Below, one piece after another: positions 34 through 63,938 of a stretch of 64,000 nt of DNA (position 1 is the first letter of the stretch; each line of letters begins with the position of its first letter). Source of the DNA: Caenorhabditis remanei (taxonomy: Eukaryota; Nematoda; Chromadorea; Rhabditida; Rhabditidae). The position numbers were made by a program, and so were the translations under genes. The stretch spans positions 15,746,587-15,810,586 of the forward strand of contig NC_071333.1 of assembly GCF_010183535.1 (NCBI RefSeq). Reading direction: 5' to 3'. Below the pieces are notes generated by a model. The model was not told the DNA's origin, made no database searches, and saw only the letters and a program-made list of their open reading frames with translations.

Positions 34-1736
34 TCAATCATCTATTGTAATTACCTCATCAGGTCTAAACCTCTTCAGTTGACGTCTTTCAGCGGCAATT
101 GCTTCTTCTCTTTCCCGTTGGATTCGTTTTTGGCGGGATATCTCTCCAGCTCTTCGGACTGTCTCGAGGAGGTGTTTTCTCGACTTATCCTCTCCCTGAA
201 AATCAATTCAATCATTTTCTTTTACATATTTTGAAGTATGTTACTTCTCTGATTGCCATCTCCACAGTGGTCAGCATTTCGATTCGTATTCCATCGATTT
301 GGAGGAGGGCTCTTGGATTGTTCTTGATCTGCTCGAGAATCGCATCCTGAAAGTACGGAATTAGATTTTCCAAGGATCTACAGTTTTAGATAAACTTACG
401 AAATCTTTTAGTGGCTTCTCAGTGATTAGCATCTTCTCCAATAGATGAATCAATTGGAATGGGCGGTCAGTTCGGTGCAGAGTGTCGATGTAGCGGATCT
501 CCTGTTTGATTTGCGATTTGTCCATTCCCAGATATCCTTTTTCGTCTGCATGCAACCCCAAAAACAACTCTAGAAGTTTTTCGATTCGAGGGATGACTCG
601 ATCGCTGAAAACACTCAGTTGAAACTCAGTAATATCACATAAGGAATACTCACAGATATCTATACATTTGGTCCTCGTTACCAATATGAACCATAATGCA
701 CTTGTCCTGGGAATCCTTTCCGTTTTTTTGCTTGAGTGCTGCTCCCGGATTGATGAGCAGTGTGAAGTAACCAAACAAATCCAAAAAATTGGGGAACAGT
801 AGATATTTCTTTGTGAAGATATCTTCTGTTTCTTCGAAATCGAAGTTCTCCTCAAATTCTTTCTCGACCTGAAATTTCAGCTCATTAAATCATCATCTTC
901 AGAGTGGAAAACACCAACCTTTGCGAAGCGCGGATCGTTGGTTTCCGTGATTGCGCATGTGTTCAATTTGAAACACAGAGTTTCAGATTTGCTGTAAGAT
1001 TTTTGATTCGTTATGAAAAATGACTTGTCCACTTACTATGTTTCAATTTGCCGTTCGTAGACTTCCACAAGGCGGAAGAGAAGAAGACGTTCAGCCATTT
1101 GTTGACTCATGTTGAGTCCTTCTTCGAAATCTTGATGCATGCAGCGGATGTCGGATATTGTTACTGTAAAATTTTTGCATTACGAGATCTTTGAAGTGTT
1201 TCGGAGCACAAAGGTGATTCTCCATGTGTTTATTCTTCATCTTTCGGTATCCTTCCGCGCGGGACTACGAGCGAGGGACTTTCACAAGAGATATCTAGAG
1301 GTCTAGAAATGAACATATGCTCAAAACTAGAGAACATACTATTTCGAATACGCAGCGTCCATTTCTGCAATTAGAATCCGATAGATTCTGTTAGTTTTTG
1401 TGTTATCGCTCGATTTAGTTATGGCTTTAGAAATATTATTTAACCCAAGTTAACTACAGTCACCGTACTCCCTAACACTTACGTATTCCCTTGTATGGTT
1501 GAGCAATGTTGGTTCCGGAGGCGCTTTGGTAATCATGCATCACAAACTCAGCAACTGCGTGCAACAACGAGGGATTCTGAAAAAATATTTGATTTTTTAA
1601 ATGTATTTCTCTTTTTAGGCAAACATACGTTCTCATCCTTGCGGACGGCGTCATAGAGACTTGCAAGTCCCGGTGTTCCCGCGAGTCTTTTTATGATCTC
1701 TTTTTCAACATCCTTGTAGCTCCTATCAATTGGCAT
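34..1736 (-). CDS. Family A paralog 1: degenerate Ulp/C48-like protein, 8 exons, 361 aa
   Basis: Exons by splice consensus and phase: 1736-1629, 1576-1483, 1163-1037, 991-919, 868-654, 604-400, 346-245, 195-34, total 1086 nt, stop TGA. The start MPIDRSY lies 24 nt after a TTTTCAG that probably receives a spliced leader. Residues 156-174 (KKYLLFP...GYFTLLIN), 191-198 (CIMVHIGN) and 246-262 (DTLHRTDRPFQLIHLLE) line up in order and spacing with the His, Asp and Q..NDCG blocks of Ulp1-type (C48) desumoylases, but carry Tyr/Phe, Gly and Arg where His, Asp and Cys would be. If the fold call is right this is a pseudoprotease; that is inference. The C-terminus is basic (residues about 310-350) and ends in TIDD. 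The exon structure is certain enough; the function is unknown. The gene is nearly identical, introns included, to the copy at 6334-8243. Confidence 0.8.
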
Positions 1737-6333: not shown

Positions 6334-8243
6334 TCAATCATCTATTGTAATTACCTCATCAGGTCTAAACCTCTTCAGTTGACGTCTTTCAGCGGCAATT
6401 GCTTCTTCTCTTTCCCGTTGGATTCGTTTTTGGCGGGATATCTCTCCAGCTCTTCGGACTGTCTCGAGGAGGTGTTTTCTCGACTTATCCTCTCCCTGAA
6501 AATCAATTCAATCATTTTCTTTTACATATTTTAAAGTATGTTACCTCTCTGATCGCTAATTCCACAGTGGTCAGCATTTCGATTCGTATTCCATCAATTT
6601 GATGGAGGGTTCGGGGATTTTTCTTGATTTCTTCAAGAATGGCTTCCTGAAAATGTAGTGATTTTTATTTTCCTGAGATCCACAATTTAAAAAAAACTTA
6701 CAAAATCGTTTAGTGGTTTTTCCGTTACCAGGAACTTCTCCAATAGATGGATCACTTGGTACGGGCGGTCAGTTCGGTGCAGAGTGTCGAAGTAGCGGAT
6801 CTCCTGTTTGATTTGCGATTTGTCCATTCCCAGATATCCTTTTTCGTCTGCATGCAGCCCCAAAAACAAGTCTAGAAGTTTTTCGATTCGAGGGATGACT
6901 CGATCGCTGAAAACACTCAGTTGAAACTCAGTAATATCACATAAGGAATACTCACAGATATCTATACATTTGGTCCTCGTTACCAATATGAACCATAATG
7001 GACTTGTCCTGGGAATCCTTTCCGTTTTTTTGCTTGAGTGCTGCTCCCGGATTGATGACCAGTGTGACGTAGCCAAACAAATCCAAAAAATTCGGGAAGA
7101 TCAGATATTTCTTTGTGAAGATATCTTCTGTTTCTTCGAAATCGAAGTTTTCCTCAAATTCAGTTTCGACCTGAAACTTCAACTCATTAAAGCATAATCT
7201 TCAGAGTGGAAAACACTAACCTTTGCGAAGCGCGGATCGTTGGTTTCCGTGATTGAGCATGTGTTCAATTTGAAACACAGAGTTTCAGCTTTGCTGTAAA
7301 ATTTTTGATTTTTAATGAAAAATAATTTTTCCACTTACTATGTTTCGATTTGGCGTTCGTAGACTTCCACAAGGCGGAAGAGAAGAAGACGTTCAGCCAT
7401 CTGTTGACTCATGTTGAGTCCTTCTTCAAAATCTTGATGCATGCAGCGGATGTCGGATATTGTTACTGTAAAATTTTTAGATTGCGATATTTTTGAAGTG
7501 TTTCTGAGCACAATGGTGATTCTCCATTTGTATATTCTTCATCTTTCATGTTGATTCTCCATTTGAATATTCTTCATCTTTCCGGTATCCGTAAGTGTTT
7601 CTAAACACACAGGTGACATTTCTTGTGTGTATCACTTACCCCACGGTACCGGCCCCCGCGTGACCACTGGCGAGAGACTTTCACTAGCGATATCTACAGA
7701 TCTAGAAATGAACTTATGCTCCAAACTATACAAAAAACTATTTTGACTACGCAGTGTCCATTTCTACTATCAAAATCCATTAGCTTCTGTTAATTTTTAA
7801 GTTTTGCTAGGACTAGGTACATGCTAAATCAAGTTGATTAGAACAGCCTATGCAGGACTTGACGATGTTCATAAGTCATTTGAATCCTTTTCTCAAGACA
7901 GTATAAGGCATATAGGGGAACCTAATTGTGGCTTTGAAAATAGTATTTAACCCGAGCTTGCTATAGTTAAAGTACTTCCAAATACTTACGTATTCCCTCG
8001 TATGGTTGAGCAATGTTGGTTCCGGAGGCGCTTTTGTAATCATGCATCACAAACTCGGCAACTGCGTGCAACAACGAGGGATTCTGAAAAAATATTTGAT
8101 TTTTAAAATGTATTTCTCTTTTTAGGCAAACATACGTTCTCATCCTTGCGGACGGCGTCATAGAGACTTGCAAGTCCCGGTGTTCCCGCGAGTCTTTTTA
8201 TGATTTCTTTTTCCACATCCGTGTAGCTCCTATCAATTGGCAT
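6334..8243 (-). CDS. Family A paralog 2: degenerate Ulp/C48-like protein, 8 exons, 361 aa
   Basis: Exons 8243-8136, 8083-7990, 7465-7339, 7293-7221, 7170-6956, 6906-6702, 6646-6545, 6495-6334, with every exon length equal to paralog 1 and the frame open throughout. It starts MPIDRSYTDVEKEI and ends VITIDD. The core block reads KKYLIFP...GYVTLVINPG followed by SIMVHIGN, so the positions matching the Ulp/C48 catalytic His and Asp are Tyr and Gly, and the Cys position (TDRPYQVIHL) is Arg. Differences from paralog 1 are scattered substitutions plus an intron-2 expansion near 7540-7620, where a short stretch beginning GATTCTCCATTTG is repeated. It lies on the same strand as its relatives, about 4.6 kb away on each side, each with its own upstream block, so separate promoters are likely. 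It appears intact and recently duplicated. Confidence 0.8.
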
Positions 8244-12925: not shown

Positions 12926-14704
12926 TTAATCTTCAATCGTGAAAACCTCATTTGGTTTGAACCGCTTACTGAGAGGACGACCTTCACTGTCCGTTTGGGG
13001 AACTCCAGCGGCAATGGCCTCTTCTCTCTCCAACTGAGCTCGTCTTTGACGGTAGAACTCGCCTGCTCTCTGGGCCTTTCCCAGGAGGTGCTTTCTCGGC
13101 TCATCATCTCCCTGAAAATTGATTCAATCATTTTCTTTTACATATTTTGAAGTATGTTACCTCTTTGATTGCTATCTCAATACTGCTCAGCATCTGAAAT
13201 CGGATTGCATCGATTTGGAAGGCGGTTCTGCTATTTGTCTTGATTTCTTTGAGAATGGTATCCTGAAAACTAGTTTTTCTAAAACACACAGGCTTAGATA
13301 AACTTACGAAATCACTAAGTGGATGGTGCGTTTCCAGCATCTTTTCCATCAAATGTATCATTTGATATGGTCGATCGTTGCGATGGAGAGTGTCCGTGTA
13401 TCGAAGGAGATTTATGATTCGAGACTTATCTAGCTCCAGATACCCCTTCTCTTCCGCATACAACCCCAGAAACAGCTCAAGCAGCTTCTCGATTCGAGGT
13501 ACCACGCGTTCCCTTCAAACATTCGTTGAAACTCAGTGCTTAAATAGTAAATACTCACATGTATCTCATCATGAAATCTCGATTTCCAATGTGCACCATA
13601 ACGCACTCCTTCGAATTGTACCGAGACTTCTTCTTATTCTTCTTTTTGATGGCCGCTCCGGGATTGATAACCAACGTGACGTAGCCATATCGCTCATAAT
13701 AGTTGGGGAAGAGAAGGTACTTCTTTGTGAAGATATCCTCTGTTTCTTCGAAATCGAAGATCTCCTCGAATTGACTCTCGACCTGAAATTTCAGCTCATT
13801 AAATCATTGTCTTCAGAGTGGGAAAACTAACCTTTGAGAAGGGCGAACTGCTTGTTTCGTTCATTGCGCAGGTGTTCAATTTGAAGCACAGAGTTTTTGG
13901 TTTACTGTAAGATTTATATTTTTTATGAAAAATGACTTGTCCACTTACAATGTTTCGATTTGGCGTTCGTAGACTTCCACGAGGCGGAAGAGAAGAATAC
14001 GTTCAGCCATTTGTTGACTCATGTTGAGTCCTTCTTCGAAATCTTGACGCATGCAGCGGATGTCGGATATCGTCACTGTAAATTTTTAAGTTTGCGTAAT
14101 TATTGAAGTGTTTCTGATACAAAAGTGATTTTCGCTGTGTGTGTGTGTGTGTGTGTTTACCGGTCCGCGCGGGACCACTGGCGATGGACTCTCACTAGGG
14201 ATATTTACCGATCTAGAAATGAATTTATGCTCAAAACGAGAGTAAATACTGTTCACGCAGTGTCTATTTCTGCTATCAGAATCCTTAGATCCTGTTAGTC
14301 TTCGAATTACAGCTTGACAAATTGCGGCGGTTTTGCATTTTTCTTCTCCTTTTAACACAAAAATATGAAAAAAAAGCGAAAAATAGAAATCGAGCCGTAA
14401 CAGTACTCGTTAAGCCTCTCTCCCTCAGTAACAGTACTCCCTAGCACTTACACATTCCTTCGTATGGCTGAGCAATGTTTTTTCCGGATGCGCACTGGTA
14501 TTCATGCATCACAAACTCGGCGACTGCGTGCAACAACGATTGACTCTAAAAAACGATTAGATTGTTTCATGTATTTCTCTTTCTCGGCAAACGTACATTC
14601 TCGAACTTGCGAACGGTGTTATAGAGACCTGCAAGATCCGGTTTTGACGAGAGTCTTCTTACGATCTCCTTTTCCACATCTGTGTAGCTCCTGTCGAGGG
14701 GCAT
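12926..14704 (-). CDS. Family A paralog 3: degenerate Ulp/C48-like protein, 8 exons, 372 aa
   Basis: Exons 14704-14597, 14545-14452, 14075-13949, 13904-13832, 13782-13559, 13512-13308, 13262-13161, 13111-12926, total 1119 nt, stop TAA. Intron positions and phases match paralogs 1 and 2. Exon 5 is 9 nt longer, adding a lysine-rich KKKNKKKSR loop between the two core strands, and the last exon is 24 nt longer. The core reads KKYLLFP...YGYVTLVINPG, then CVMVHIGN, then LHRNDRPYQMIHLMEK; the three positions expected to be catalytic in Ulp/C48 enzymes are again Tyr, Gly and Arg. Protein divergence from paralogs 1 and 2 is visibly larger than between those two, so this is an older duplicate. No frame break is seen. 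Confidence 0.78.
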
Positions 14705-20031: not shown

Positions 20032-22203
20032 TCTCAGTAGAAGTTCCTGTAAGAAGTCCTCTTTCAATCAATACATTTATACATATGTATAAAACGCCAA
20101 TGCTGAATGCGCACGGAAACGAGAGAAAGCGGGTCCAAAGAGGGATCAAAAAGCAGTAAGAAAATATGATGCCATGTGCGCATGTCTCGCGATATCTCTG
20201 AATACAGTACACTCTATTGCCTACAGTATGATTTCCTTGATATATCCGTCGGTCTGTCACGAAAACAACGATAATTGGTATTAAATTGTGAAAAACAGTC
20301 TAGAGGCACCATGTTATGAAGAAATCGGAATAGGGAAAAATTTTATTTGAATCGAGTACACCCTGCAGGTAAAGCATTCTGTATGGCTGGTCGAAAAAGT
20401 GCAATGGAAGAAAATGGACTTGACAACCACGGCCAGGCTCCACAGCGCCACGACGAAAACGAGAAACGCAGACAACGAGTTAGAAACGTGTTTTCCCTTC
20501 GAGCCGAGATGGAATGAATCACGCTTTTCGATTGAAAAAAGACACATTCATACGATGTTTCTTTCATCGGGAAGACTGTTGTACAGTTTTTCAATCAGAT
20601 TTTACATTGTAAAGTTTAGAAGACGGAAAATGATTGAAACCGAGTGAAACGGGGAATGAAAATTGTATTTCGCTCTCCGGGAAGCTTCGAAATGATAAAA
20701 AAGCAAAGTTTACAGGATTCATATTTTCAGATAATGTCTGTTGGTAGGAAATGCAGGTGTCATCAATATGGAGCGAACTATTTTCACTTTTTCCTGGAAA
20801 AATTGAAGACGGATGGAATCTGAAGCTTTCTGAAAAATGTTGAAAAATCTCATAGACCATTCCATTCTATATCTGGAACTGCAAAAGTTTCAACTTTCAC
20901 ATGAATTTCGGGACTTTCTCAAGGAAATTGCCCAGTTATTTTCTCAAAAACCAATTTTCTCCCCTCTTTACTGCTCTATCAACATTTTTCCATTCCCATA
21001 AGTTTCCCACCCGCTATCAACTTAATCAACCCCTCGACGTTTTTTTTGTATGTGTGTGTCTATGTGTATTAGTAGATTGACCCCCTCCTCGAAGAAAGTC
21101 CCTCGGGCCAACATTGTGTTGAGGAGAAGAGGTCAATCGGCCTCACCAGTTGGTGTTCCTAACCTCTCTCCACATCAAACACTCTCTCATCGACAATATT
21201 GTTGGTTTGAAAACACTCAGAAGAGCACAGGAATTGGAAAAGAAATTGGGAAAGATAGATAACACAATCAGTTCTATGATGACATAAGCAAATCGTTCCA
21301 CAATCTGTAGAGAGAGAGATTCAAAAAATTGTGGTGGGAAAGTTTGATAGATCATTAAAATTTACGAAAATGTGATTTATCATAACTTTCCATAGCTAAT
21401 ACATAGTCGGACCAACTCTTTTTTAGGTTGAGATTCTTGTGAGAGCAATATTCCACATTTTTTGAAGAATCTACAAAACCTAAACCAAGAGTAAGTATAT
21501 TTCAGCAGAGGATAGCCCATTTTCAAATTTTAATGGTGAAAGTTTTGTTCATAGCGAATTCATCACTTTATCTACCAACATGCTCCAGTTACCCAGTTCT
21601 CATGACCCGACCGTTTACGGTTTCCCTAGCTGAAGTTTTTGGTAAGCACATCTGAAGTTTGTTTTCAGTTTTTTGTTTTCATACACCCCTTTCCTTTCGA
21701 TAACAGTCTTTCTTATACTGGGTCACACTGCCCCCCCCCCTCTAAACGCCTTTCCTCATCTTTGCTCTTCATATTCGTACAGCAATTAATTTGGCTCGCC
21801 TTTCCCCCCTTCGCCCTCGCCCACCACCCTATTCATTTTTTTGGGTCGATACTCTGTGTCTCCCTCCCTCTCGTAATGCAAAACGTATTCGACGGCGCAT
21901 CGATCTGCAAGAAGACAGGACGGAGTGATGAGAGGAGGTGGTTTTCTGTCATTGTATGCGGAGGAGGGGGTACGACCGAGCCACAAAATAACTAGGAGAC
22001 ACGCTAGGAAACGAGGCACTTTGGGCCGGGCAGGACGGCCCCTCCGCGCGCGCGCGCACACACACCCTCCGGTCGATTCGGAGCGCGCACAGATGGATCG
22101 CCCGGGAAAGAACACGTCAGCATTGGACCCTCCTCACAATAGTCCCCTCCCCCTATTCCATCGTCAGTACGCATTCGTCATTCTTATTTATCCTCCTGGT
22201 CGG
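20032..22203. other. Gene-free leader between paralog 4 and the microRNA array; candidate pri-miRNA promoter
   Basis: No coding exons are supported. From 21720 the sequence becomes pyrimidine-rich, and 22020-22130 is GC-rich (GGGCCGGGCAGGACGGCCCC) with a CG/CA alternating run at about 22047-22068. The nearest plus-strand transcript downstream is the microRNA array, so its promoter probably lies here; that is inference from position only. Confidence 0.4.
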
Positions 22204-22282
22204 ATCGGACCTCCACTGGTTTTTGCTGCGGTAATATTTCTCAGAATCAATATCACCGGGTGAAAATCAGGGCAGGTCCGAT
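22204..22282 (+). ncRNA. mir-35 family hairpin 1, type A
   Basis: 5' arm ATCGGACCTCCACTGG pairs with 3' arm ending GGGCAGGTCCGAT. Predicted mature 3p starts at 22253 (UCACCGGGUGAAAAUCAG). Confidence 0.9.
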
Positions 22283-22320
22283 TCCAGCCATTTCCCCTTA
22301 TTCCCCTATTATCTGGTCGG

Positions 22321-22398
22321 ATCGGACCTCCACTGGTTTTCGCTTCGGTGATATTTCAAGAACGATTATCACCGGGTGAAAATCAGGGCAGGTCCGAT
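22321..22398 (+). ncRNA. mir-35 family hairpin 2, type A
   Basis: Same arms as hairpin 1; loop TTTCAAGAACGAT. Mature 3p starts at 22369 (UCACCGGGUGAAAAUCAG). Confidence 0.9.
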
Positions 22399-22415
22399 TC
22401 CCCATTCCCGGCTGG

Positions 22416-22493
22416 ATTGGACCTTTGCTGGTTTTCGCCGCGGTCATATTTCAAGAAAGACTATCACCGGGCGAACATCGGTGCAGGTCCAAT
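22416..22493 (+). ncRNA. mir-35 family hairpin 3, type B
   Basis: ATTGGACCTTTGCTGG pairs with ATCGGTGCAGGTCCAAT. Mature 3p starts at 22464 (UCACCGGGCGAACAUCGG); C at position 9 where relatives have U. Confidence 0.9.
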
Positions 22494-22511
22494 CCTGCTA
22501 CTTTATTCCCT

Positions 22512-22615
22512 GACGACGGGAACCGTGCTGGTTTCGACCTCGGTAATAGGTCCATATATGAGAAGAACCTATCACCGGGTGGAAACTGGTACGGGTCCCC
22601 GAGTCAGTCTATTTC
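22512..22615 (+). ncRNA. mir-35 family hairpin 4, type C
   Basis: GACGACGGGAACCGTGCTGG pairs with CTGGTACGGGTCCCCGAGTC. Mature 3p starts at 22572 (UCACCGGGUGGAAACUGG), closest to C. elegans miR-35 itself; the 5' arm GUGCUGGUUUCG resembles the miR-35 passenger strand. Confidence 0.9.
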
Positions 22616-22677
22616 GAAAAGGACCTGTATTCACTACTACCTACTTATATTCTCTATTACCCCTGTCCTCTGGTCGG

Positions 22678-22755
22678 ATCGGCCCTTCACTGGTTTTCGC
22701 CGCGGTCATATTTCAAGTATGATTATCACCGGGTGAAAATCAGAGCAGGGCCGAT
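22678..22755 (+). ncRNA. mir-35 family hairpin 5, type A variant
   Basis: Stem base changed on both arms: ATCGGCCC opposite GGGCCGAT, against ATCGGACC/GGTCCGAT in hairpins 1 and 2. Mature 3p starts at 22726 (UCACCGGGUGAAAAUCAG). Confidence 0.9.
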
Positions 22756-22840
22756 CCAACCGATTTCCCAAACCCTCTCCCTTTGTCTCTCTATTCCTCT
22801 TATTCCTCCTATTCACCTAACGTACTCTATTCCCAGCTGG

Positions 22841-22918
22841 ATTGGACCTCTGCTGGTTTTCACCTCGGTTATATTTCAAGCACGATTATCACCGGGTGAA
22901 CATCGGTGCAGGTCCAAT
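22841..22918 (+). ncRNA. mir-35 family hairpin 6, type B
   Basis: ATTGGACCTCTGCTGG pairs with ATCGGTGCAGGTCCAAT. Mature 3p starts at 22889 (UCACCGGGUGAACAUCGG), similar in its first 13 nt to miR-37. Confidence 0.9.
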
Positions 22919-22935
22919 CCTGCTCCATTACAATC

Positions 22936-23027
22936 GACGACGGGAACAGTGCTGATGCCGACCTTGGTAATAGGACTAAACTGTGACGAGCTATCACCGG
23001 GTGGGCATTGGTTCTGGTCCCTTAGTC
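22936..23027 (+). ncRNA. mir-35 family hairpin 7, type C variant
   Basis: Arms GTGCTGATGCCGACC and GGTGGGCATTGGTTC replace the GGTTTC/GAAACC pair of type C by ATGCC/GGCAT, keeping pairing. Mature 3p starts at 22994 (UCACCGGGUGGGCAUUGG). Confidence 0.9.
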
Positions 23028-23090
23028 ATCCTGTTGTGATAAGGACCTATATTCCCTGCTACCTACTCATACTTTTCACTCCTCGGTCGG

Positions 23091-23168
23091 ATCGGACCTC
23101 CACTGGTTTTAGCTTCGGTGATATTTCAAGAATGATTATCACCGGGTGAAAATCAGGGCAGGTCCGAT
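23091..23168 (+). ncRNA. mir-35 family hairpin 8, type A
   Basis: ATCGGACC/GGTCCGAT stem. Mature 3p starts at 23139 (UCACCGGGUGAAAAUCAG). Confidence 0.9.
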
Positions 23169-23205
23169 CCCACCGATTTCGCCCATTCCCCATATGCCCA
23201 GCTGG

Positions 23206-23277
23206 ATTGGACCTTTGCTGGTTTTCACCTCGGTTATATTTCTAGTATCACCGGGTGAACATCGGTGCAGGTCCAAT
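23206..23277 (+). ncRNA. mir-35 family hairpin 9, type B, short loop
   Basis: ATTGGACC/GGTCCAAT stem with about 6 nt missing from the loop, giving 72 nt. Mature 3p starts at 23248 (UCACCGGGUGAACAUCGG). Confidence 0.88.
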
Positions 23278-23295
23278 CCTGCCCTTTTACTCCCT

Positions 23296-23382
23296 GACGA
23301 CGGGAACCGTGCTGGTTTCGACTTTGGTAATAAACCAAAAGAATGCTATCACCGGGTGGAAACTGGTACGGGTCCCCGAGTC
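23296..23382 (+). ncRNA. mir-35 family hairpin 10, type C
   Basis: GACGACGGGAACC pairs with GGGTCCCCGAGTC. Mature 3p starts at 23349 (UCACCGGGUGGAAACUGG). Confidence 0.9.
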
Positions 23383-23446
23383 GTGCTATTCTGGAAAAAC
23401 CTATATTCACTACTGTCTACTTATTTTCTCTATTCACTCAGGTCGG

Positions 23447-23524
23447 ATCGGCCCTCCACTGGTTTCCGCCTCGGTCATATTTCAAGTATGATTATCACCG
23501 GGTGAAAATCAGAGCAGGGCCGAT
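23447..23524 (+). ncRNA. mir-35 family hairpin 11, type A variant
   Basis: Same double change as hairpin 5 (ATCGGCCC/GGGCCGAT). Mature 3p starts at 23495 (UCACCGGGUGAAAAUCAG). Confidence 0.9.
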
Positions 23525-23610
23525 TCCACCGGTTTCCCCTCTCCCCACTCCACTTGTTCTCTTTATTTCTCTTATTCTTCCTATTCTTCTAACCTACTCT
23601 ATTCCCAGCT

Positions 23611-23682
23611 GGACCTTTGCTGGTTTTCACCTCGGTTATATTTCAATTATGATTATCATCGGGTGAGCATCGGTGTAGGTCC
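23611..23682 (+). ncRNA. mir-35 family hairpin 12, type B, decayed
   Basis: The 5' arm has lost the ATTGG stem base (AGCTGGACC directly) and the 3p at 23656 reads UCAUCGGGUGAGCAUCGG, a change inside the seed. Pairing is weaker; processing is doubtful. Confidence 0.6.
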
Positions 23683-23702
23683 AATCCTGCTCCATTGCAC
23701 TT

Positions 23703-23794
23703 GACGACGGGAACCGTGCTGATGTTGACCTCGGTGATAGGACTGAACCGTTACAAGCTATCACCGGGTGAACATTGGTACTGGTCCCTTAGTC
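23703..23794 (+). ncRNA. mir-35 family hairpin 13, type C variant
   Basis: Arms GTGCTGATGTTGACC and GGTGAACATTGGTAC: a third paired version of the same stem positions. Mature 3p starts at 23761 (UCACCGGGUGAACAUUGG). Confidence 0.9.
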
Positions 23795-23857
23795 ATGATA
23801 TTGCGATAAGGATCTATATTCTCTGCTACCTATTCATATTCTCAACTCCTCGGTCGG

Positions 23858-23935
23858 ATCGGACCTACACTGGTTTTCGCTGCGGTGATACTTCGAGAAT
23901 GATTATCACCGGGTGAAAATCAGGGCAGGTCCGAT
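23858..23935 (+). ncRNA. mir-35 family hairpin 14, type A
   Basis: ATCGGACC/GGTCCGAT stem. Mature 3p starts at 23906 (UCACCGGGUGAAAAUCAG). Confidence 0.9.
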
Positions 23936-23980
23936 CCAACCAATTTACCAATCCCTTCCCCTCCCTCTATTCCCGGCTGG

Positions 23981-24055
23981 ATTGGACCTTTGCTGGTTTT
24001 CACCTCGGTTATACTTCAAGTATGATTAACACCGGGTGAATCGGTGCAGTCCAAT
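23981..24055 (+). ncRNA. mir-35 family hairpin 15, type B, decayed
   Basis: The 3' arm reads TTAACACCGGGTGAATCGG: the first mature base is changed from U to A and three bases are missing further on; the stem base has also lost one G (CAGTCCAAT). Confidence 0.6.
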
Positions 24056-24073
24056 TCTGCAACTTTACTCCCT

Positions 24074-24166
24074 GACGACGGGAACCGTGCTGGTTTCGAC
24101 TTCGGTAATAGTCAATATATAAGAAATACCTATCACCGGGTGGAAACTGGTGCGGGTCCCCGAGTC
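24074..24166 (+). ncRNA. mir-35 family hairpin 16, type C
   Basis: GACGACGGGAACC/GGGTCCCCGAGTC stem. Mature 3p starts at 24133 (UCACCGGGUGGAAACUGG). Confidence 0.9.
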
Positions 24167-24250
24167 AGTCTATTCTGAAGAAAACCTCGGACCTACACTA
24201 CTCACTGTTACCTACCAATATTCTCTATTCCCTCCACCCTCCTCGGTGGG

Positions 24251-24328
24251 ATCGGACCTACACTGGTTTTTGCTTCGGTGATATTTCAAGAATGATTATC
24301 ACCGGGTGAAAATCAGGGCAGGTCCGAT
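24251..24328 (+). ncRNA. mir-35 family hairpin 17, type A
   Basis: ATCGGACC/GGTCCGAT stem. Mature 3p starts at 24299 (UCACCGGGUGAAAAUCAG). Confidence 0.9.
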
Positions 24329-24364
24329 CTCGCCGATTCCCCTATTTCCCCTATTCCCTGCTGG

Positions 24365-24442
24365 CTTGGACCTTTGCTGGTTTTCGCCTCGGTTATATTT
24401 CTAGAAAGACTATCACCGGGTGAACATTGGTGCAGGTCCAAT
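24365..24442 (+). ncRNA. mir-35 family hairpin 18, type B
   Basis: CTTGGACC opposite GGTCCAAT with a slightly altered stem base. Mature 3p starts at 24413 (UCACCGGGUGAACAUUGG). Confidence 0.88.
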
Positions 24443-24460
24443 CCTCCTACTTTATTCCCT

Positions 24461-24547
24461 GACGACGGAAACCGTGCTGGTTTCGACCTCGGTAATAGAC
24501 CAGCAGAAAGCTATCACCGGTTGGAAACTGGTACGGGTCCCCGAGTC
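24461..24547 (+). ncRNA. mir-35 family hairpin 19, type C, seed-edge change
   Basis: GACGACGGAAACC/GGGTCCCCGAGTC stem. The 3p at 24514 reads UCACCGGUUGGAAACUGG, changing mature position 8 from G to U. Confidence 0.82.
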
Positions 24548-24630
24548 AGTCGATTCTGATAAGGACCTTTATTCACTACTACTTGTTCACTATATTCGCT
24601 TTCTAAGCTATTCCCCAGATTGGATCGGCA

Positions 24631-24704
24631 CCTCGGCAGCTTCTTCTCACCGGTGATATATCCCTCTAGTTGATTATCTCCAATTGATTATCAAACTGCC
24701 AAGG
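24631..24704 (+). ncRNA. Possible diverged hairpin 20 of the array
   Basis: CCTCGGCAG at 24631 can pair with CTGCCAAGG at 24696-24704. The 3' side begins GATTATCAAACTGCC, sharing GATTATCA with the family but with a different seed. Size and place fit a microRNA precursor; the middle of the stem is weak. Confidence 0.35.
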
Positions 24705-24731
24705 CCCGGCTCTCTCTCTGCTCTCTGTGAC

Positions 24732-24809
24732 GAGAGCCACGCCAATTCTTACCGCGGTAATAGAACTGCATAGTTTCTATCACCGGGTGAAAATTCGGCT
24801 CGGATCTCT
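24732..24809 (+). ncRNA. mir-36: mir-36-like hairpin closing the array
   Basis: 5' arm GAGAGCCACGCCAATTCTT pairs with AAAATTCGGCTCGGATCTC. The 3p at 24780 reads UCACCGGGUGAAAAUUCG, identical to C. elegans miR-36 over these 18 nt, and CGCCAAUU in the 5' arm also recalls the mir-36 precursor. It does not belong to the A/B/C types, so it is probably the ancestral, unamplified member. The symbol is by resemblance; orthology is not proved. Confidence 0.85.
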
Positions 24810-24829
24810 TAACAGACATTTTAAAACCC

Positions 24830-27280: not shown

Positions 27281-27800
27281 TTTTTGGGGGTATTTGAGTT
27301 TAGAACTCGGAAGAATAGAACTGCGACAAAATAAAACTGTGAAAATATAGAACTGACTAAAATAGAACCGAACAAAGTGGAACTACGAAAAAATGGAACT
27401 GCTACAAAATAGAACTGTTACAAAATAGAACTCTAGTTCGAATGGAGCGCGCTTGCATTTACTTGCAAAAATTCCATTTATTTTTGACTTTTCTTAAATA
27501 AATTCATTTTTTTCATCGAATAATTGTTCAAATTGAAAAAAAAAGTCGTTCTGATTCTTCTAAAAAGAAAAAATGCAAACGCGCTCCATTCGAACTAGAG
27601 TTCTATTTTGTAACAGTTCTATTTTGTAGCAGTTCCATTGTGTTCAGTTCTATTTTGTTGAGTTCTGTTTTGTAGCAGTTCTAACTTTCACTGTTCCACT
27701 TTGTAACAGTTCTATTTTTTCCTGTTCTATATTTTCACAGTTTTATTTTGTCGCAGTTCTATTCTTCCGAGTTCTAAACTCAAATACCCCCCTTTTTTTC
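27281..27800. mobile_element. Foldback element with reiterated arms
   Basis: Arms 27281-27460 and 27571-27800 are inverted copies with a 110-bp loop. The outer ends are GGGGGTATTTGAGTTTAGAA and its complement. Within each arm, TAGAACTG(T/C)(G/T)ACAAAA is repeated about every 16-17 bp, so the arms are themselves tandem arrays. No coding capacity; a non-autonomous foldback element. Confidence 0.8.
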
Positions 27801-29185
27801 ATATTTGGAGGTCAATCACTGGTAAATGTTTTTGAATTTGATATCTTAACAACTTTTCTACACTGCTATTTCTTGAATACTTTATTTTTGGAAGATACTT
27901 TAGTTTTTGAGTACGCGTTCCTTTTTTGAACGAGTCAGACATGATCTTCGGGATAAGAGTGTCTAACCTCTTGCAAACTTTCTTTTCTCCCGTAATTTTT
28001 TCTCGAGTTATCGAAGAGTTTTATTTATTTCTATTAGTTTGTCAGTATCTTCCCAATAACCATCCAGTTCTTTTTTTCGAATAGAGTCTAAAGGTCACTT
28101 TCCACCTGTTCCTTTCTTCTGTTCTCATGACATCAGGTGTACGTCGAACAGCCGCTCAACGCAACCCTTACGATGAGCAATCGGGGTACTTGGCGGGGTC
28201 ATAAAAATATACAGTAATCCTCTGGGGGATACGGTAATTGCGCAATATTGAACAGGCTACTCAGGTCTTGTCTTCCAGATAAAATTTATGACACCACTTG
28301 GCATTTCTAGAGAGCTATCTGAATGACTTAAAAATATTTTATGTGTATGCCATTTTTCTGTGCCTCTTCATCTAAATTTCCATTCCAAATGTTCCATTCC
28401 GTCTTCCATTAGATACAAAAACGTCCGTTTCTGAAAAAAGTGGTCGTCGACAAGATGAGAACGTAGATTTGTCTCAAAGCAAGAGCACAATGCACGATGA
28501 CGAAGAGAAAAGAGAAGCAGATGAAGAGAAAGAAGAGAGAAGGGCAACTCGCAGCACACATTGCAATTTCGGAAAAACAACGTATACTTTTCTATTCATC
28601 TGCTGGCTGCTGCCAGAATGTTTATATTACTCTCCTGTTTATTCCAAACGATTTCTCTGTTTATTCCGACGTTTCATTCTGATGAGACGTCATAATGCTG
28701 ATATTCTTTCGTACAAGCAATTAGAGCGGTGCTACTATCAGCTTCGGTTATATACATTCCCACAACATATAACCAGGCTCATAGTAGTTCTGATCTTTTT
28801 TGCTGACATTCACCATTATTTTCCAAAGGTAGAAATCCCACCCAGTCTGAAATGTGACAATCGAAAGAACAGATCTAAAACATGTAAAACAGTGTAAAGT
28901 TACATTTTTTATTACACCTTTTCGTTGAGTGTTAGTCGGCGGGAGTTCCGAAAAATGACATCATTATAAGCAAATCAGATTTAATAAAATTTATTTAATT
29001 GGGCAGAAGAAAACCCCCATGTTCCACAGACTTTCTACGTAAACCCCAAAGTAGACAATTTTTCAAACAATTTTCATATGGAATAAACTTCGAGAGAAAA
29101 CAAAATTATAGGAAAGTCAGAATAGTTAAACCACTCATTTATCGGCACCACTAGAACTTTGATCACATAACTCTCGAAACTGGCA
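27801..29185. other. Intergenic stretch, no gene supported
   Basis: A short codon-like open stretch at 28127-28203 (starting MTSGVRRTAAQRNPYDEQSG) is noted in the findings but has no partner exon. The 142-codon open frame at 28469-28897 has hydrophobic/aromatic composition typical of chance AT-rich frames. Confidence 0.3.
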
Positions 29186-62800: not shown

Positions 62801-63938
62801 TCTAAGTTAAAGCAAGCTCCTGGGTGTTCCTGTTTTAAGGTATTCGCTACTTCCAGGGTGCTGAGCAAGCAGGTGCGTGCAGAGCAAGCTTCTAGGGATG
62901 ATCAGCAAGTGGGGGGCTATTATAGAATCTAGATTCATTCCCCCTCTCCCAAAGGGGGCTGATTCTAGACTCTAGATTGAAGCAAGCTCCAGGGCATCCC
63001 TGTTTTAAGGAGATCACTACTTCCAGGGTGCTGAGCAAGCTTCTAGAGATGATCAGCTAGGTGGGGGCTATTATAGAATCTAGATTACCTCCCACTCTTT
63101 CACGGGGGCTGATTCTCGACTCTAAGTTAAAGCAAGCTCCTGGGTGTTCCTGTTTTAAGGTAACAACTACTTCCAGGGTGCTGAGCAAGCGGGTGCGTGC
63201 AGAGCAAGCTTCTAGGGATGATCAGCTAGGTGGGGAGCTATTATAGACTCTAGATTCGCACCCCTTCTCCCACGGGGGCTGATTTTAGACTCTAGGTTTA
63301 CCCCCCTCCCCCTAATTGTTCTTACGGTGGTACGCATTTGTTCCTCATCGGCATTCAATTTCCATAGCATTAACACATCCACATTCGAGAAACGGGGCTA
63401 TTTTCGAGTGACAGAGTGAAACCGGCGTGCGTATTGCTTTGGATATTTTAAGAGAAATAACTTTCCTCAGATTGCGCGAAGGCAAAGTAAAGTAGAACAA
63501 GGGATAAGTTCACGTTGTCATAAAATCTTTTTTGATTTTGTGCTTTTACGCTACTATGAAAAAAAGGAAATAGGAAAGGGGGGGGGGGGAATTTCCTACT
63601 CTTCCAGGGGGGGGGAATTCCCGACATCGATGGGGGGAGAAAATATACTGTTACCGTAGTCAAGCCCTGTAAAAGTCCAAAAATGGTTTGCAAAACCGGT
63701 GGTAAAGACGGTTTTTCTCATAGACAAGTTGCGAGCACAAAAAAAAAAGTTGAGACATGTCTAATCAAATTGTCCTTCCTGTCTGATAGCAAATTGGAAC
63801 GATTCCAAACTTGCGACTCCCTGAGATTCCCTTGTCAGTTTATTTTGTAACTTAGAACGTTCGTTTCCTTCCATTGTAGCTTTTGCAACCATCTCATAGA
63901 TAAAAAATACAAATTTCGCAATCCTTGTTATTCCAGAG
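59887..63938 (+). CDS. Modular low-complexity protein of phase-1 exons, 12 exons, 399 aa
   Basis: Exons 59887-59898, 59942-60152, 60240-60347, 60532-60639, 60690-60764, 61089-61163, 61250-61330, 61384-61470, 61516-61608, 61958-62044, 62093-62353, 63937-63938. Every intron after the first is in phase 1. The first coding exon has only 4 codons (MQDS). Residues 5-40 are basic (RKTLNDDWLKRVLRNRL); a Ser-rich stretch follows. Exons 3 and 4 are both 108 nt and similar (LEPEEPSNDGQ in each), a tandem exon duplication. The middle is acidic with Pro; exon 9 carries GPRTRSRSQMEAARLARN; exon 11 has a long Glu-rich helix and a basic, nuclear-signal-like RRSQRKRRKR. The stop TAG would be split (T|AG) across the last intron; if that intron is retained, the frame runs to a stop at 62434-62436. 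Probably nuclear. Family not recognised. Confidence 0.7.
62386..63822. mobile_element. 1.4-kb inverted-repeat element in the last intron of the 399-aa gene
   Basis: Ends CGCAAGTTTGGAATCGT and ACGATTCCAAACTTGCG are perfect inverses. Homology of the arms continues for about 200 bp inward (GATTAGACAT / ATGTCTAATC; GTAGTCAAGGG / CGTAGTCAAGCCC; C-runs against G-runs). The centre contains G/C homopolymers and a satellite array. No transposase frame; non-autonomous. Confidence 0.75.
62780..63300. repeat. Satellite array, about 165-bp unit, three copies plus a fragment
   Basis: Each unit contains GGGGGCTGATTCTAGACTCT, AAGCAAGCTCC, GGGTGCTGAGCAAGC, GATGATCAGC and GCTATTATAGA. Units start near 62782, 62946 and 63105, with a partial unit at 63277. 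Confidence 0.8.

What the first reader, a model, noticed from the sequence alone, without database searches (positions are those of the whole stretch)
22204..24809. A mir-35 microRNA cluster amplified to about 20 hairpins
At least 20 plus-strand fold-backs of precursor size carry the UCACCGGGU start that defines the mir-35 family, against eight family genes in C. elegans. The array is one contiguous 2.6-kb block, with seven A, six B and six C hairpins and one mir-36-like. Because the family doses early embryonic development, a large copy-number change is biologically notable. The hairpins and motif are seen directly; the family identity is from knowledge of C. elegans mir-35 to mir-42.
Basis: partly seen in the sequence, partly recalled or inferred. 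Interest (0 to 1): 0.93.

Follow-up and report, generated by a model that had tools for sequence, protein, structure and literature searches.

The report
X-linked array of twenty mir-35 hairpins
The X chromosome of a worm genome whose chromosome lengths match Caenorhabditis remanei carries, in one 2.6-kb block, 20 predicted hairpins of a microRNA family that worm embryos need, on top of seven on chromosome II; they likely raise the embryo's supply of it, and since females have two X chromosomes and males one, that supply could differ between the sexes.

Summary
In detail: 20 plus-strand hairpins (7 A, 6 B, 6 C, 1 D) of the mir-35 family lie between about 22190 and 24820. 18 of 20 keep the seed CACCGGG; all 20 fold better than every shuffle tried; the stems covary; mature arms are more conserved than spacers. 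Copies differ by 12-26% per triplet, so the block is not an assembly stutter. It is one leading A hairpin, six A-B-C triplets and a terminal D.

All six chromosome lengths equal those of C. remanei PX506, and the window lies on X. The seven-hairpin autosomal cluster is still present on chromosome II, so this is an extra X-linked locus, not the C. elegans-type cluster grown larger. I count at least 27 family hairpins.

Family expansion as such is in print (17 members in C. remanei, 27 in C. brenneri; PMC4640506). My paper searches showed no report of the X linkage or the triplet structure.

Seed sites follow the stop codons of 3 of 3 egl-1-like genes and of nhl-2; the xol-1 candidate has none. 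Most likely function: extra early-embryonic miR-35 supply. A sex-dosed role (XX two, X0 one) is the bold, unproven reading. No expression data were available.

The parts
22192..24816 (+). whole array: leading A, six A-B-C triplets, terminal D
22192..22288 (+). hairpin X01, type A, 3p guide start 22253
   Evidence: R1 89.4 bits; z -5.2
22309..22404 (+). hairpin X02, type A (unit U1), guide start 22369
   Evidence: R1 93.8 bits; z -8.3
22403..22501 (+). hairpin X03, type B (U1), guide start 22464, UCACCGGGCG
   Evidence: RF00685 64.1 bits; z -6.4; not listed separately, where it overlaps X02 by a base or so
22504..22607 (+). hairpin X04, type C (U1), guide start 22572
   Evidence: R1 82.2 bits; z -6.6
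22666..22761 (+). hairpin X05, type A (U2), guide start 22726
   Evidence: R1 91.4 bits; z -7.6
22829..22924 (+). hairpin X06, type B (U2), guide start 22889
   Evidence: R1 91.5 bits; z -7.6
22928..23029 (+). hairpin X07, type C (U2), guide start 22994
   Evidence: R1 73.8 bits; z -4.2; RF00685 47.2 bits, just under the cut-off
23079..23174 (+). hairpin X08, type A (U3), guide start 23139
   Evidence: R1 94.8 bits; z -7.2
23194..23283 (+). hairpin X09, type B (U3), guide start 23248
   Evidence: R1 81.9 bits; z -6.5
23288..23384 (+). hairpin X10, type C (U3), guide start 23349
   Evidence: R1 81.5 bits; z -3.8
23435..23530 (+). hairpin X11, type A (U4), guide start 23495
   Evidence: R1 89.4 bits; z -7.0
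23596..23691 (+). hairpin X12, type B (U4), guide start 23656, altered seed CAUCGGG
   Evidence: R1 78.6 bits; z -5.4
23695..23796 (+). hairpin X13, type C (U4), guide start 23761
   Evidence: R1 78.1 bits; z -6.9
23846..23941 (+). hairpin X14, type A (U5), guide start 23906
   Evidence: R1 93.3 bits; z -8.2
23969..24061 (+). hairpin X15, type B (U5), guide start 24029, ACACCGGG with short deletions in the 3p arm
   Evidence: R1 71.2 bits; z -4.0; RF00685 37.1 bits, under the cut-off
24066..24168 (+). hairpin X16, type C (U5), guide start 24133
   Evidence: R1 79.9 bits; z -5.2
24239..24334 (+). hairpin X17, type A (U6), guide start 24299
   Evidence: R1 94.0 bits; z -8.5
24353..24448 (+). hairpin X18, type B (U6), guide start 24413
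   Evidence: R1 92.3 bits; z -4.3
24453..24549 (+). hairpin X19, type C (U6), guide start 24514, altered seed position 8 (CACCGGU)
   Evidence: R1 75.8 bits; z -3.9
24611..24718 (+). possible decayed 21st hairpin without the seed
   Evidence: RF00685 21.9 bits, E 0.52; R1 14.5 bits, E 0.37; z -0.6
24718..24816 (+). hairpin X20, type D (mir-36-like), guide start 24780
   Evidence: R1 64.0 bits; z -4.3

Best explanation
Window 22192-24816, on the X chromosome of a genome whose six chromosome lengths equal those of Caenorhabditis remanei PX506, holds 20 predicted mir-35-family microRNA hairpins in one plus-strand tandem block, which likely serves as an extra source of early-embryonic miR-35 beside the seven-hairpin cluster on chromosome II. 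INFERRED: the block is transcribed as one or a few long primary transcripts; Drosha and Dicer release 3p guides beginning UCACCGGG; these share targets with the autosomal members and repress egl-1 and other mRNAs in early embryos; unequal exchange between triplets set the copy number; selection kept the guides because embryos need much miR-35. Because the germline tends to silence X in C. elegans, the block would be expected to act mainly after fertilisation or in late oogenesis, and at up to twofold higher dose in XX than X0 embryos until dosage compensation starts.
For: Folding z -3.8 to -8.5 in 20 of 20. Covariation over 27 hairpins (20 X, 7 II): 15 of 22 stem pairs change on both sides; 59 such cells against 14.8 in shuffles (0 of 500 reach it) and 6 to 17 in the slid controls. 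Triplet alignment: differences 8.7% in mature, 12.4% star, 22.9% loop, 29.6% spacer; variable columns 13 of 64 mature against 30 of 48 ungapped spacer, Fisher p 1.1e-5; 95 gapped spacer columns were left out of that test. Two unit lineages, U2+U4 with 100/100 support. X linkage: six contig lengths equal Table 1 of PMC10461856. Seven chromosome II hairpins, all seven above the Rfam cut-off. CCCGGTGA 24, 57 and 43 bases after the stop in 3 of 3 EGL-1-family genes, CCCGGTG 82 bases after the nhl-2 stop; 12, 12, 23 and 18 of 5000 shuffles of each 300-base flank hold such a site. In C. [quoted passage not shown]
Against: No small-RNA reads were available; processing is unproven for every copy. Two of 20 copies have a changed 2-8 seed, a third has a changed first base and arm deletions, and a further one is at most a remnant, so some may be dead. 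When the whole 2651-base block is folded at once only 15 of 20 hairpins keep their own pairing, and the minus strand folds almost as well (-987 against -1017 kcal/mol). Mature versus star conservation does not differ significantly (p 0.33) and mature versus loop only weakly (p 0.04). Relatedness of tandem copies inflates covariation counts. Two of the three egl-1-like genes (X and II) are 79.6% alike over 1071 bases, so their sites are not independent. In C. [quoted passage not shown] No sense-strand site was found in the xol-1 candidate.
Confidence: 0.72

Rival explanations
1. The array is an X-dosed sex signal: XX embryos make up to twice as much zygotic miR-35 as X0 embryos before dosage compensation, and this helps to hold down male-promoting mRNAs in XX animals.
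For: X location. In C. [quoted passage not shown] FOX-1 is a precedent for an X-linked dose-dependent repressor (PMC7787662, start of abstract and passages).
Against: No seed site on the sense strand of the xol-1 candidate (L070 4400-8100). No site in the her-1-like loci, though only about 140 and 390 bases beyond the last matched exon were covered. X-linked microRNAs are dosage compensated in C. elegans (PMC8825453, passage). The family acts partly by maternal effect and all eight C. elegans genes are autosomal. [quoted passage not shown] elegans.
Confidence: 0.13
2. Demand from a true-female germline: in C. elegans, mothers with feminised germlines make the embryo depend more on mir-35-41; C. 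remanei mothers are true females, so extra mir-35 copies may have been favoured in male-female species to protect embryos, X0 ones above all.
For: Maternal germline feminisation (fog-2, fem-3 and others) enhances lethality of mir-35-41 deletion, with X0 embryos hit harder (PMC6404603, passages). C. brenneri, another outcrosser, is stated to have 27 members.
Against: The selfing C. briggsae is stated to have 17 members, as many as C. remanei in the same sentence. No comparison across species could be run here.
Confidence: 0.12
3. Neutral birth and death: tandem copies arise by unequal exchange and drift; seven autosomal genes do the work and the X array adds little.
For: Three of 20 copies with changed start or seed, one remnant, variable unit length 354-413 bases; eight genes suffice in C. 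elegans.
Against: Mature arms vary much less than spacers, 18 of 20 seeds are intact after 12-26% unit divergence, and stems covary.
Confidence: 0.15
4. Assembly artefact: the repeat is inflated by misassembly.
For: Tandem repeats are prone to it; no read data were available to test it here.
Against: Units differ pairwise by 12.2-25.9%, with different lengths and spacers, so copies cannot be stuttered reads of one unit; unplaced contigs showed no further hairpin copies in the searches run.
Confidence: 0.03

Closest known systems
C. elegans mir-35-41 and mir-42 (mir-35 family)
   Same: Seed CACCGGG at the start of the 3p arm, hairpins in a tight same-strand cluster.
   Different: Eight genes in two loci, all on chromosome II in C. 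elegans; here 20 on X in A-B-C triplets plus seven on chromosome II.
Expanded mir-35 families of C. remanei, C. briggsae and C. brenneri as already reported
   Same: More members than C. elegans; 17, 17 and 27 stated (PMC4640506, passage). C. remanei names mir-35b, mir-35c-2 and mir-35i are in use (PMC4255771, passages).
   Different: At least 27 in this assembly; the location and unit structure are given in none of the passages I saw. Which named genes lie in this array could not be tested.
Zebrafish miR-430 cluster
   Same: An embryonic microRNA family in tandem triplets of variants a, b and c (PMC10417697, abstract and passages) on chromosome 4, which carries the sex locus in wild strains (PMC11075544, passages).
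   Different: Unrelated by sequence as far as known (recalled, not tested); more than 50 copies, repeated internal promoters, zygotic only; here six triplets and no evidence on promoters.
Xenopus miR-427
   Same: A high-copy microRNA family held to clear maternal mRNA (mentioned in PMC10417697, passage).
   Different: Not compared by sequence or structure here.

Membership tests
mir-35 family (Rfam mir-36, RF00685) | Guide seed CACCGGG (positions 2-8) in the 3p arm | tested here: met
   18 of 20; 19 of 20 for positions 2-7
mir-35 family (Rfam mir-36, RF00685) | Precursor hairpin scoring above the family's curated cut-off | tested here: met
   18 of 20 above 48 bits; 17 of 20; the two misses are X07 47.2 and X15 37.1 bits
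mir-35 family (Rfam mir-36, RF00685) | Stable stem-loop with the guide paired in the stem | tested here: met
   20 of 20 with z -3.8 or lower, 17-21 of 22 guide bases paired; but 15 of 20 when the block is folded whole
mir-35 family (Rfam mir-36, RF00685) | Processed 21-23 nt guide loaded in Argonaute | not testable with these tools
   no small-RNA reads available
mir-35 family (Rfam mir-36, RF00685) | Expression in oocytes and early embryos | not testable with these tools
   known for C. elegans; no C. remanei data here
mir-35 family (Rfam mir-36, RF00685) | Seed sites in known targets | tested here: met
   3 of 3 EGL-1-family genes and nhl-2; sup-26 not tested
X signal element | X-linked | tested here: met
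   contig C6 length equals chromosome X
X signal element | Represses xol-1 | tested here: not met
   no seed match on the sense strand of the xol-1 candidate; so I do not file it as one
X signal element | Dose-dependent effect on sexual fate in early embryos | not testable with these tools
   needs sexed embryos

The most novel reading that the evidence does not exclude
C. remanei has moved most of an essential embryonic microRNA family (20 of at least 27 hairpins) onto its X chromosome, so that XX embryos start with twice the zygotic miR-35 dose of X0 embryos: a microRNA-based, female-biased X-dose signal, built as A-B-C triplets in parallel with the triplet miR-430 array on the zebrafish sex chromosome.
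Probability: 0.13. Interest if true: 0.85.

Novelty: new variant of a known kind. Interest (0 to 1): 0.55.

Why it matters
The mir-35 family is essential in C. elegans and tied to sex determination and embryo viability there. An X-linked array with two to three times the hairpins of the autosomal cluster gives a natural experiment on microRNA dosage: in a male-female species, most predicted guide genes for an embryo-essential seed are present in two doses in one sex and one in the other. It also offers a second, independent case beside zebrafish miR-430 of early-embryonic microRNAs amplified as tandem triplets on a chromosome linked to sex.

Tried and rejected
Direct repression of xol-1 or her-1: no seed match on the sense strand of the xol-1 candidate; her-1-like loci also without a site, but their 3' regions were covered only in part.

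A shared promoter with the chromosome II cluster: that cluster has TATAAAAG upstream, the region upstream of the array has no TATAA(A/T); the best short matches are 9-10 bases with E 0.89 or worse. One TATAAA/TATATA-type match (24116) lies in the array. No promoter is claimed.

Source of the X hairpins on chromosome II: identities 0.47-0.70; 14 of 20 are closest to II2, but the tree leaves this open (18 of 24 inner branches weak) and joins long branches.

Further family members: exact hits of TATCACCGGGTNNANA outside X array and II cluster, 8 of 8 fetched; with one-mismatch hits 19 of 70 such places fetched, none scored with model R1; 51 not examined. The backwards control pattern gave far more hits (711), so such matches are mostly chance. 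No mir-42-like hairpin was met in this; the count of 27 is a lower bound.

Neighbour genes: 19 open frames scanned against Pfam gave one weak hit; one PDB search of a frame gave none; the protein search returned only the window's own protein. Conserved gene order with C. elegans could not be tested.

Literature: 10 searches. The papers for de Wit 2009, Shi 2013, McJunkin and Ambros 2017, Alvarez-Saavedra and Horvitz 2010 and the PX506 assembly are not held; their content where used is taken from papers that cite them or recalled. Supplementary files could not be read.
Full report
WHERE IT IS. The window is G000:C6:15746587-15810586. The six large contigs C1-C6 have lengths 17,247,545; 19,935,723; 17,877,849; 25,790,997; 22,502,457 and 21,501,900. 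These equal, to the base, chromosomes I, II, III, IV, V and X of Caenorhabditis remanei PX506 in Table 1 of PMC10461856 (section 6 read). The window is therefore read as chromosome X, 15.75-15.81 Mb; by the same table that is near the border of the central domain and the right arm (16.07 Mb). A weak match to the Xol-1 family lies on the same contig (25.6 bits against a cut-off of 25); that xol-1 is X-linked in C. elegans is recalled.

WHAT IS THERE. Twenty plus-strand hairpins, with 3p starts from 22253 to 24780. All 20 fold with z between -3.8 and -8.5 and below every one of 200 shuffles; 5 of 1439 random stretches of the window fold as well as -34 kcal/mol. The seed CACCGGG is kept in 18 of 20 and CACCGG in 19 of 20. 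RF00685 scores 17 of 20 above its cut-off in the window and 18 of 20 in the genome search. A model built from the 20 X and seven II hairpins lists 19 of 20 array hairpins on the plus strand; X03, which overlaps X02 by about a base, is the one not listed, and scores 64.1 bits with RF00685. Plus-strand scores exceed the minus-strand ones.

HOW IT IS BUILT. Order: A, then ABC six times, then a possible decayed hairpin, then D. The six units are 354-413 bases long. U2 and U4 form one lineage with 100/100 support and share a longer A-B spacer; U1, U3, U5 and U6 form the other. Units differ pairwise by 12.2-25.9%: mature 8.7%, star 12.4%, loop 22.9%, spacer 29.6% with 41% of spacer cells gapped. Variable columns: seed region (1-8) 3 of 24, rest of guide 10 of 40, star 21 of 75, loop 16 of 40, lower stem and flank 37 of 95, spacer 30 of 48. 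Guide versus spacer p 1.1e-5, versus lower stem 0.015, versus loop 0.043, versus star 0.33. The 12-26% is larger than the about 5% substitution from the C. remanei/C. latens ancestor given in PMC10461856 (passage); I infer that the triplets are older than that split.

STRUCTURE UNDER SELECTION. On a MAFFT alignment of 27 hairpins, 15 of 22 consensus pairs have sequences with both sides changed and pairing kept; 59 such cells against 14.8 +/- 3.4 in shuffles, 6-17 in slid controls; 93.6% of cells paired against 83.0% and 32-51%. The structure came from the same alignment, and tandem copies are related, so this is strong but not a probability. Against: in one fold of the whole block, 15 of 20 hairpins keep their own pairing and five pair with neighbours.

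THE REST OF THE FAMILY. Chromosome II holds seven hairpins at 8346748-8347602 on the minus strand, all seven over the cut-off, in an order and with guide sequences that recall mir-35 to mir-41 (recalled). An eighth seed-like site there folds weakly (z -1.9; R1 15.7 bits, E 0.19). With the whole-genome searches run and 19 of 70 other one-mismatch places checked, no further hairpin was found. The total is at least 27, 20 of them on X.

TARGETS. The genome has three EGL-1-family genes, on V, X and II. Each has CCCGGTGA 24-57 bases after its stop codon; the X and II genes are close relatives. The nhl-2 gene was recognised by 51 of 51 residues identical to PDB chain 8suc_A, whose printed name is that of the NHL ring-finger b-box family; CCCGGTG lies 82 bases after its stop. 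In C. elegans the nhl-2 site can be deleted without loss of viability or fecundity (PMC7252230, whole text), so egl-1 is the better-supported target. The xol-1 candidate has no site on its sense strand. sup-26 was not located.

HOW IT MOST LIKELY WORKS. I take it as a dose amplifier: many near-identical guides with one seed, in one block, feeding the same Argonaute pool as the autosomal cluster. In C. [quoted passage not shown] The X location adds a twist that is predicted, not shown: up to 2:1 between XX and X0 before compensation. The literature cuts both ways: the family prevents male gene expression in XX embryos and is both maternal and zygotic (PMC6404603), but X-linked microRNAs are dosage compensated (PMC8825453). 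A further thought from the same paper: embryos of mothers with feminised germlines depend more on mir-35-41, X0 ones most; C. remanei mothers are true females. The 17 members stated for selfing C. briggsae speak against a simple link to mating system.

WHAT IS KNOWN. Expansion in other Caenorhabditis is in print: PMC4640506 states 17 members in C. briggsae and C. remanei and 27 in C. brenneri (passage); the reference it prints for this is a paper on lin-4 and lin-14 (reference list part), which I did not read. PMC4255771 names C. remanei mir-35b, mir-35c-2 and mir-35i and reports unusual polymorphism in some (passages); whether these lie in this array was not testable. None of ten paper searches (listed in Tried and rejected) showed a report of an X-linked or triplet mir-35 array, but the key nematode microRNA papers are not held. 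The closest architecture is zebrafish miR-430: a-b-c triplets (PMC10417697), more than 50 genes, on the chromosome with the wild-strain sex locus (PMC11075544).

VERDICT. A real, old, conserved array; ordinary in kind as a microRNA cluster, new in its place and build as far as I could search. Interest 0.55.

Noticed in passing
window 28706-28810 (+): A strong precursor-like hairpin (-33.7 kcal/mol, z -6.6) that the mir-35 model hits at 34.8 bits, E 2.6e-6; where family guides read TATCACCGGG it reads TATAACCAGG. Single copy in the genome search. Perhaps a relative with a changed seed.
   Followed up: partly
L009 4627-4726 (-), chromosome II: A weak eighth hairpin-like site after the seven autosomal ones (TCACCGAGTAG; z -1.9, -2.4; R1 E 0.19).
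   Followed up: partly
window 361-876, 6687-7100, 13128-13514 (-): Three similar open frames on one strand; the first has a sub-threshold Hen1_N match (16.3 bits, cut-off 27).
   Followed up: no
G000 C5:5678798, C6:20204513, C2:13482071: Three EGL-1-family genes in this genome, each with a miR-35 seed site shortly after the stop.
   Followed up: yes
G000 C5:2987793-2993121 and C6:1277787-1282868: Two HER-1-like genes, one on V and one on X.
   Followed up: partly
window 27314-27763: AGTTCTATTTTGTAAC-type tandem repeats on both sides of a short gap, the two blocks reading as reverse complements of each other.
   Followed up: no
window 62877-63190: A 150-base unit repeated twice in tandem, 84% alike.
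   Followed up: no
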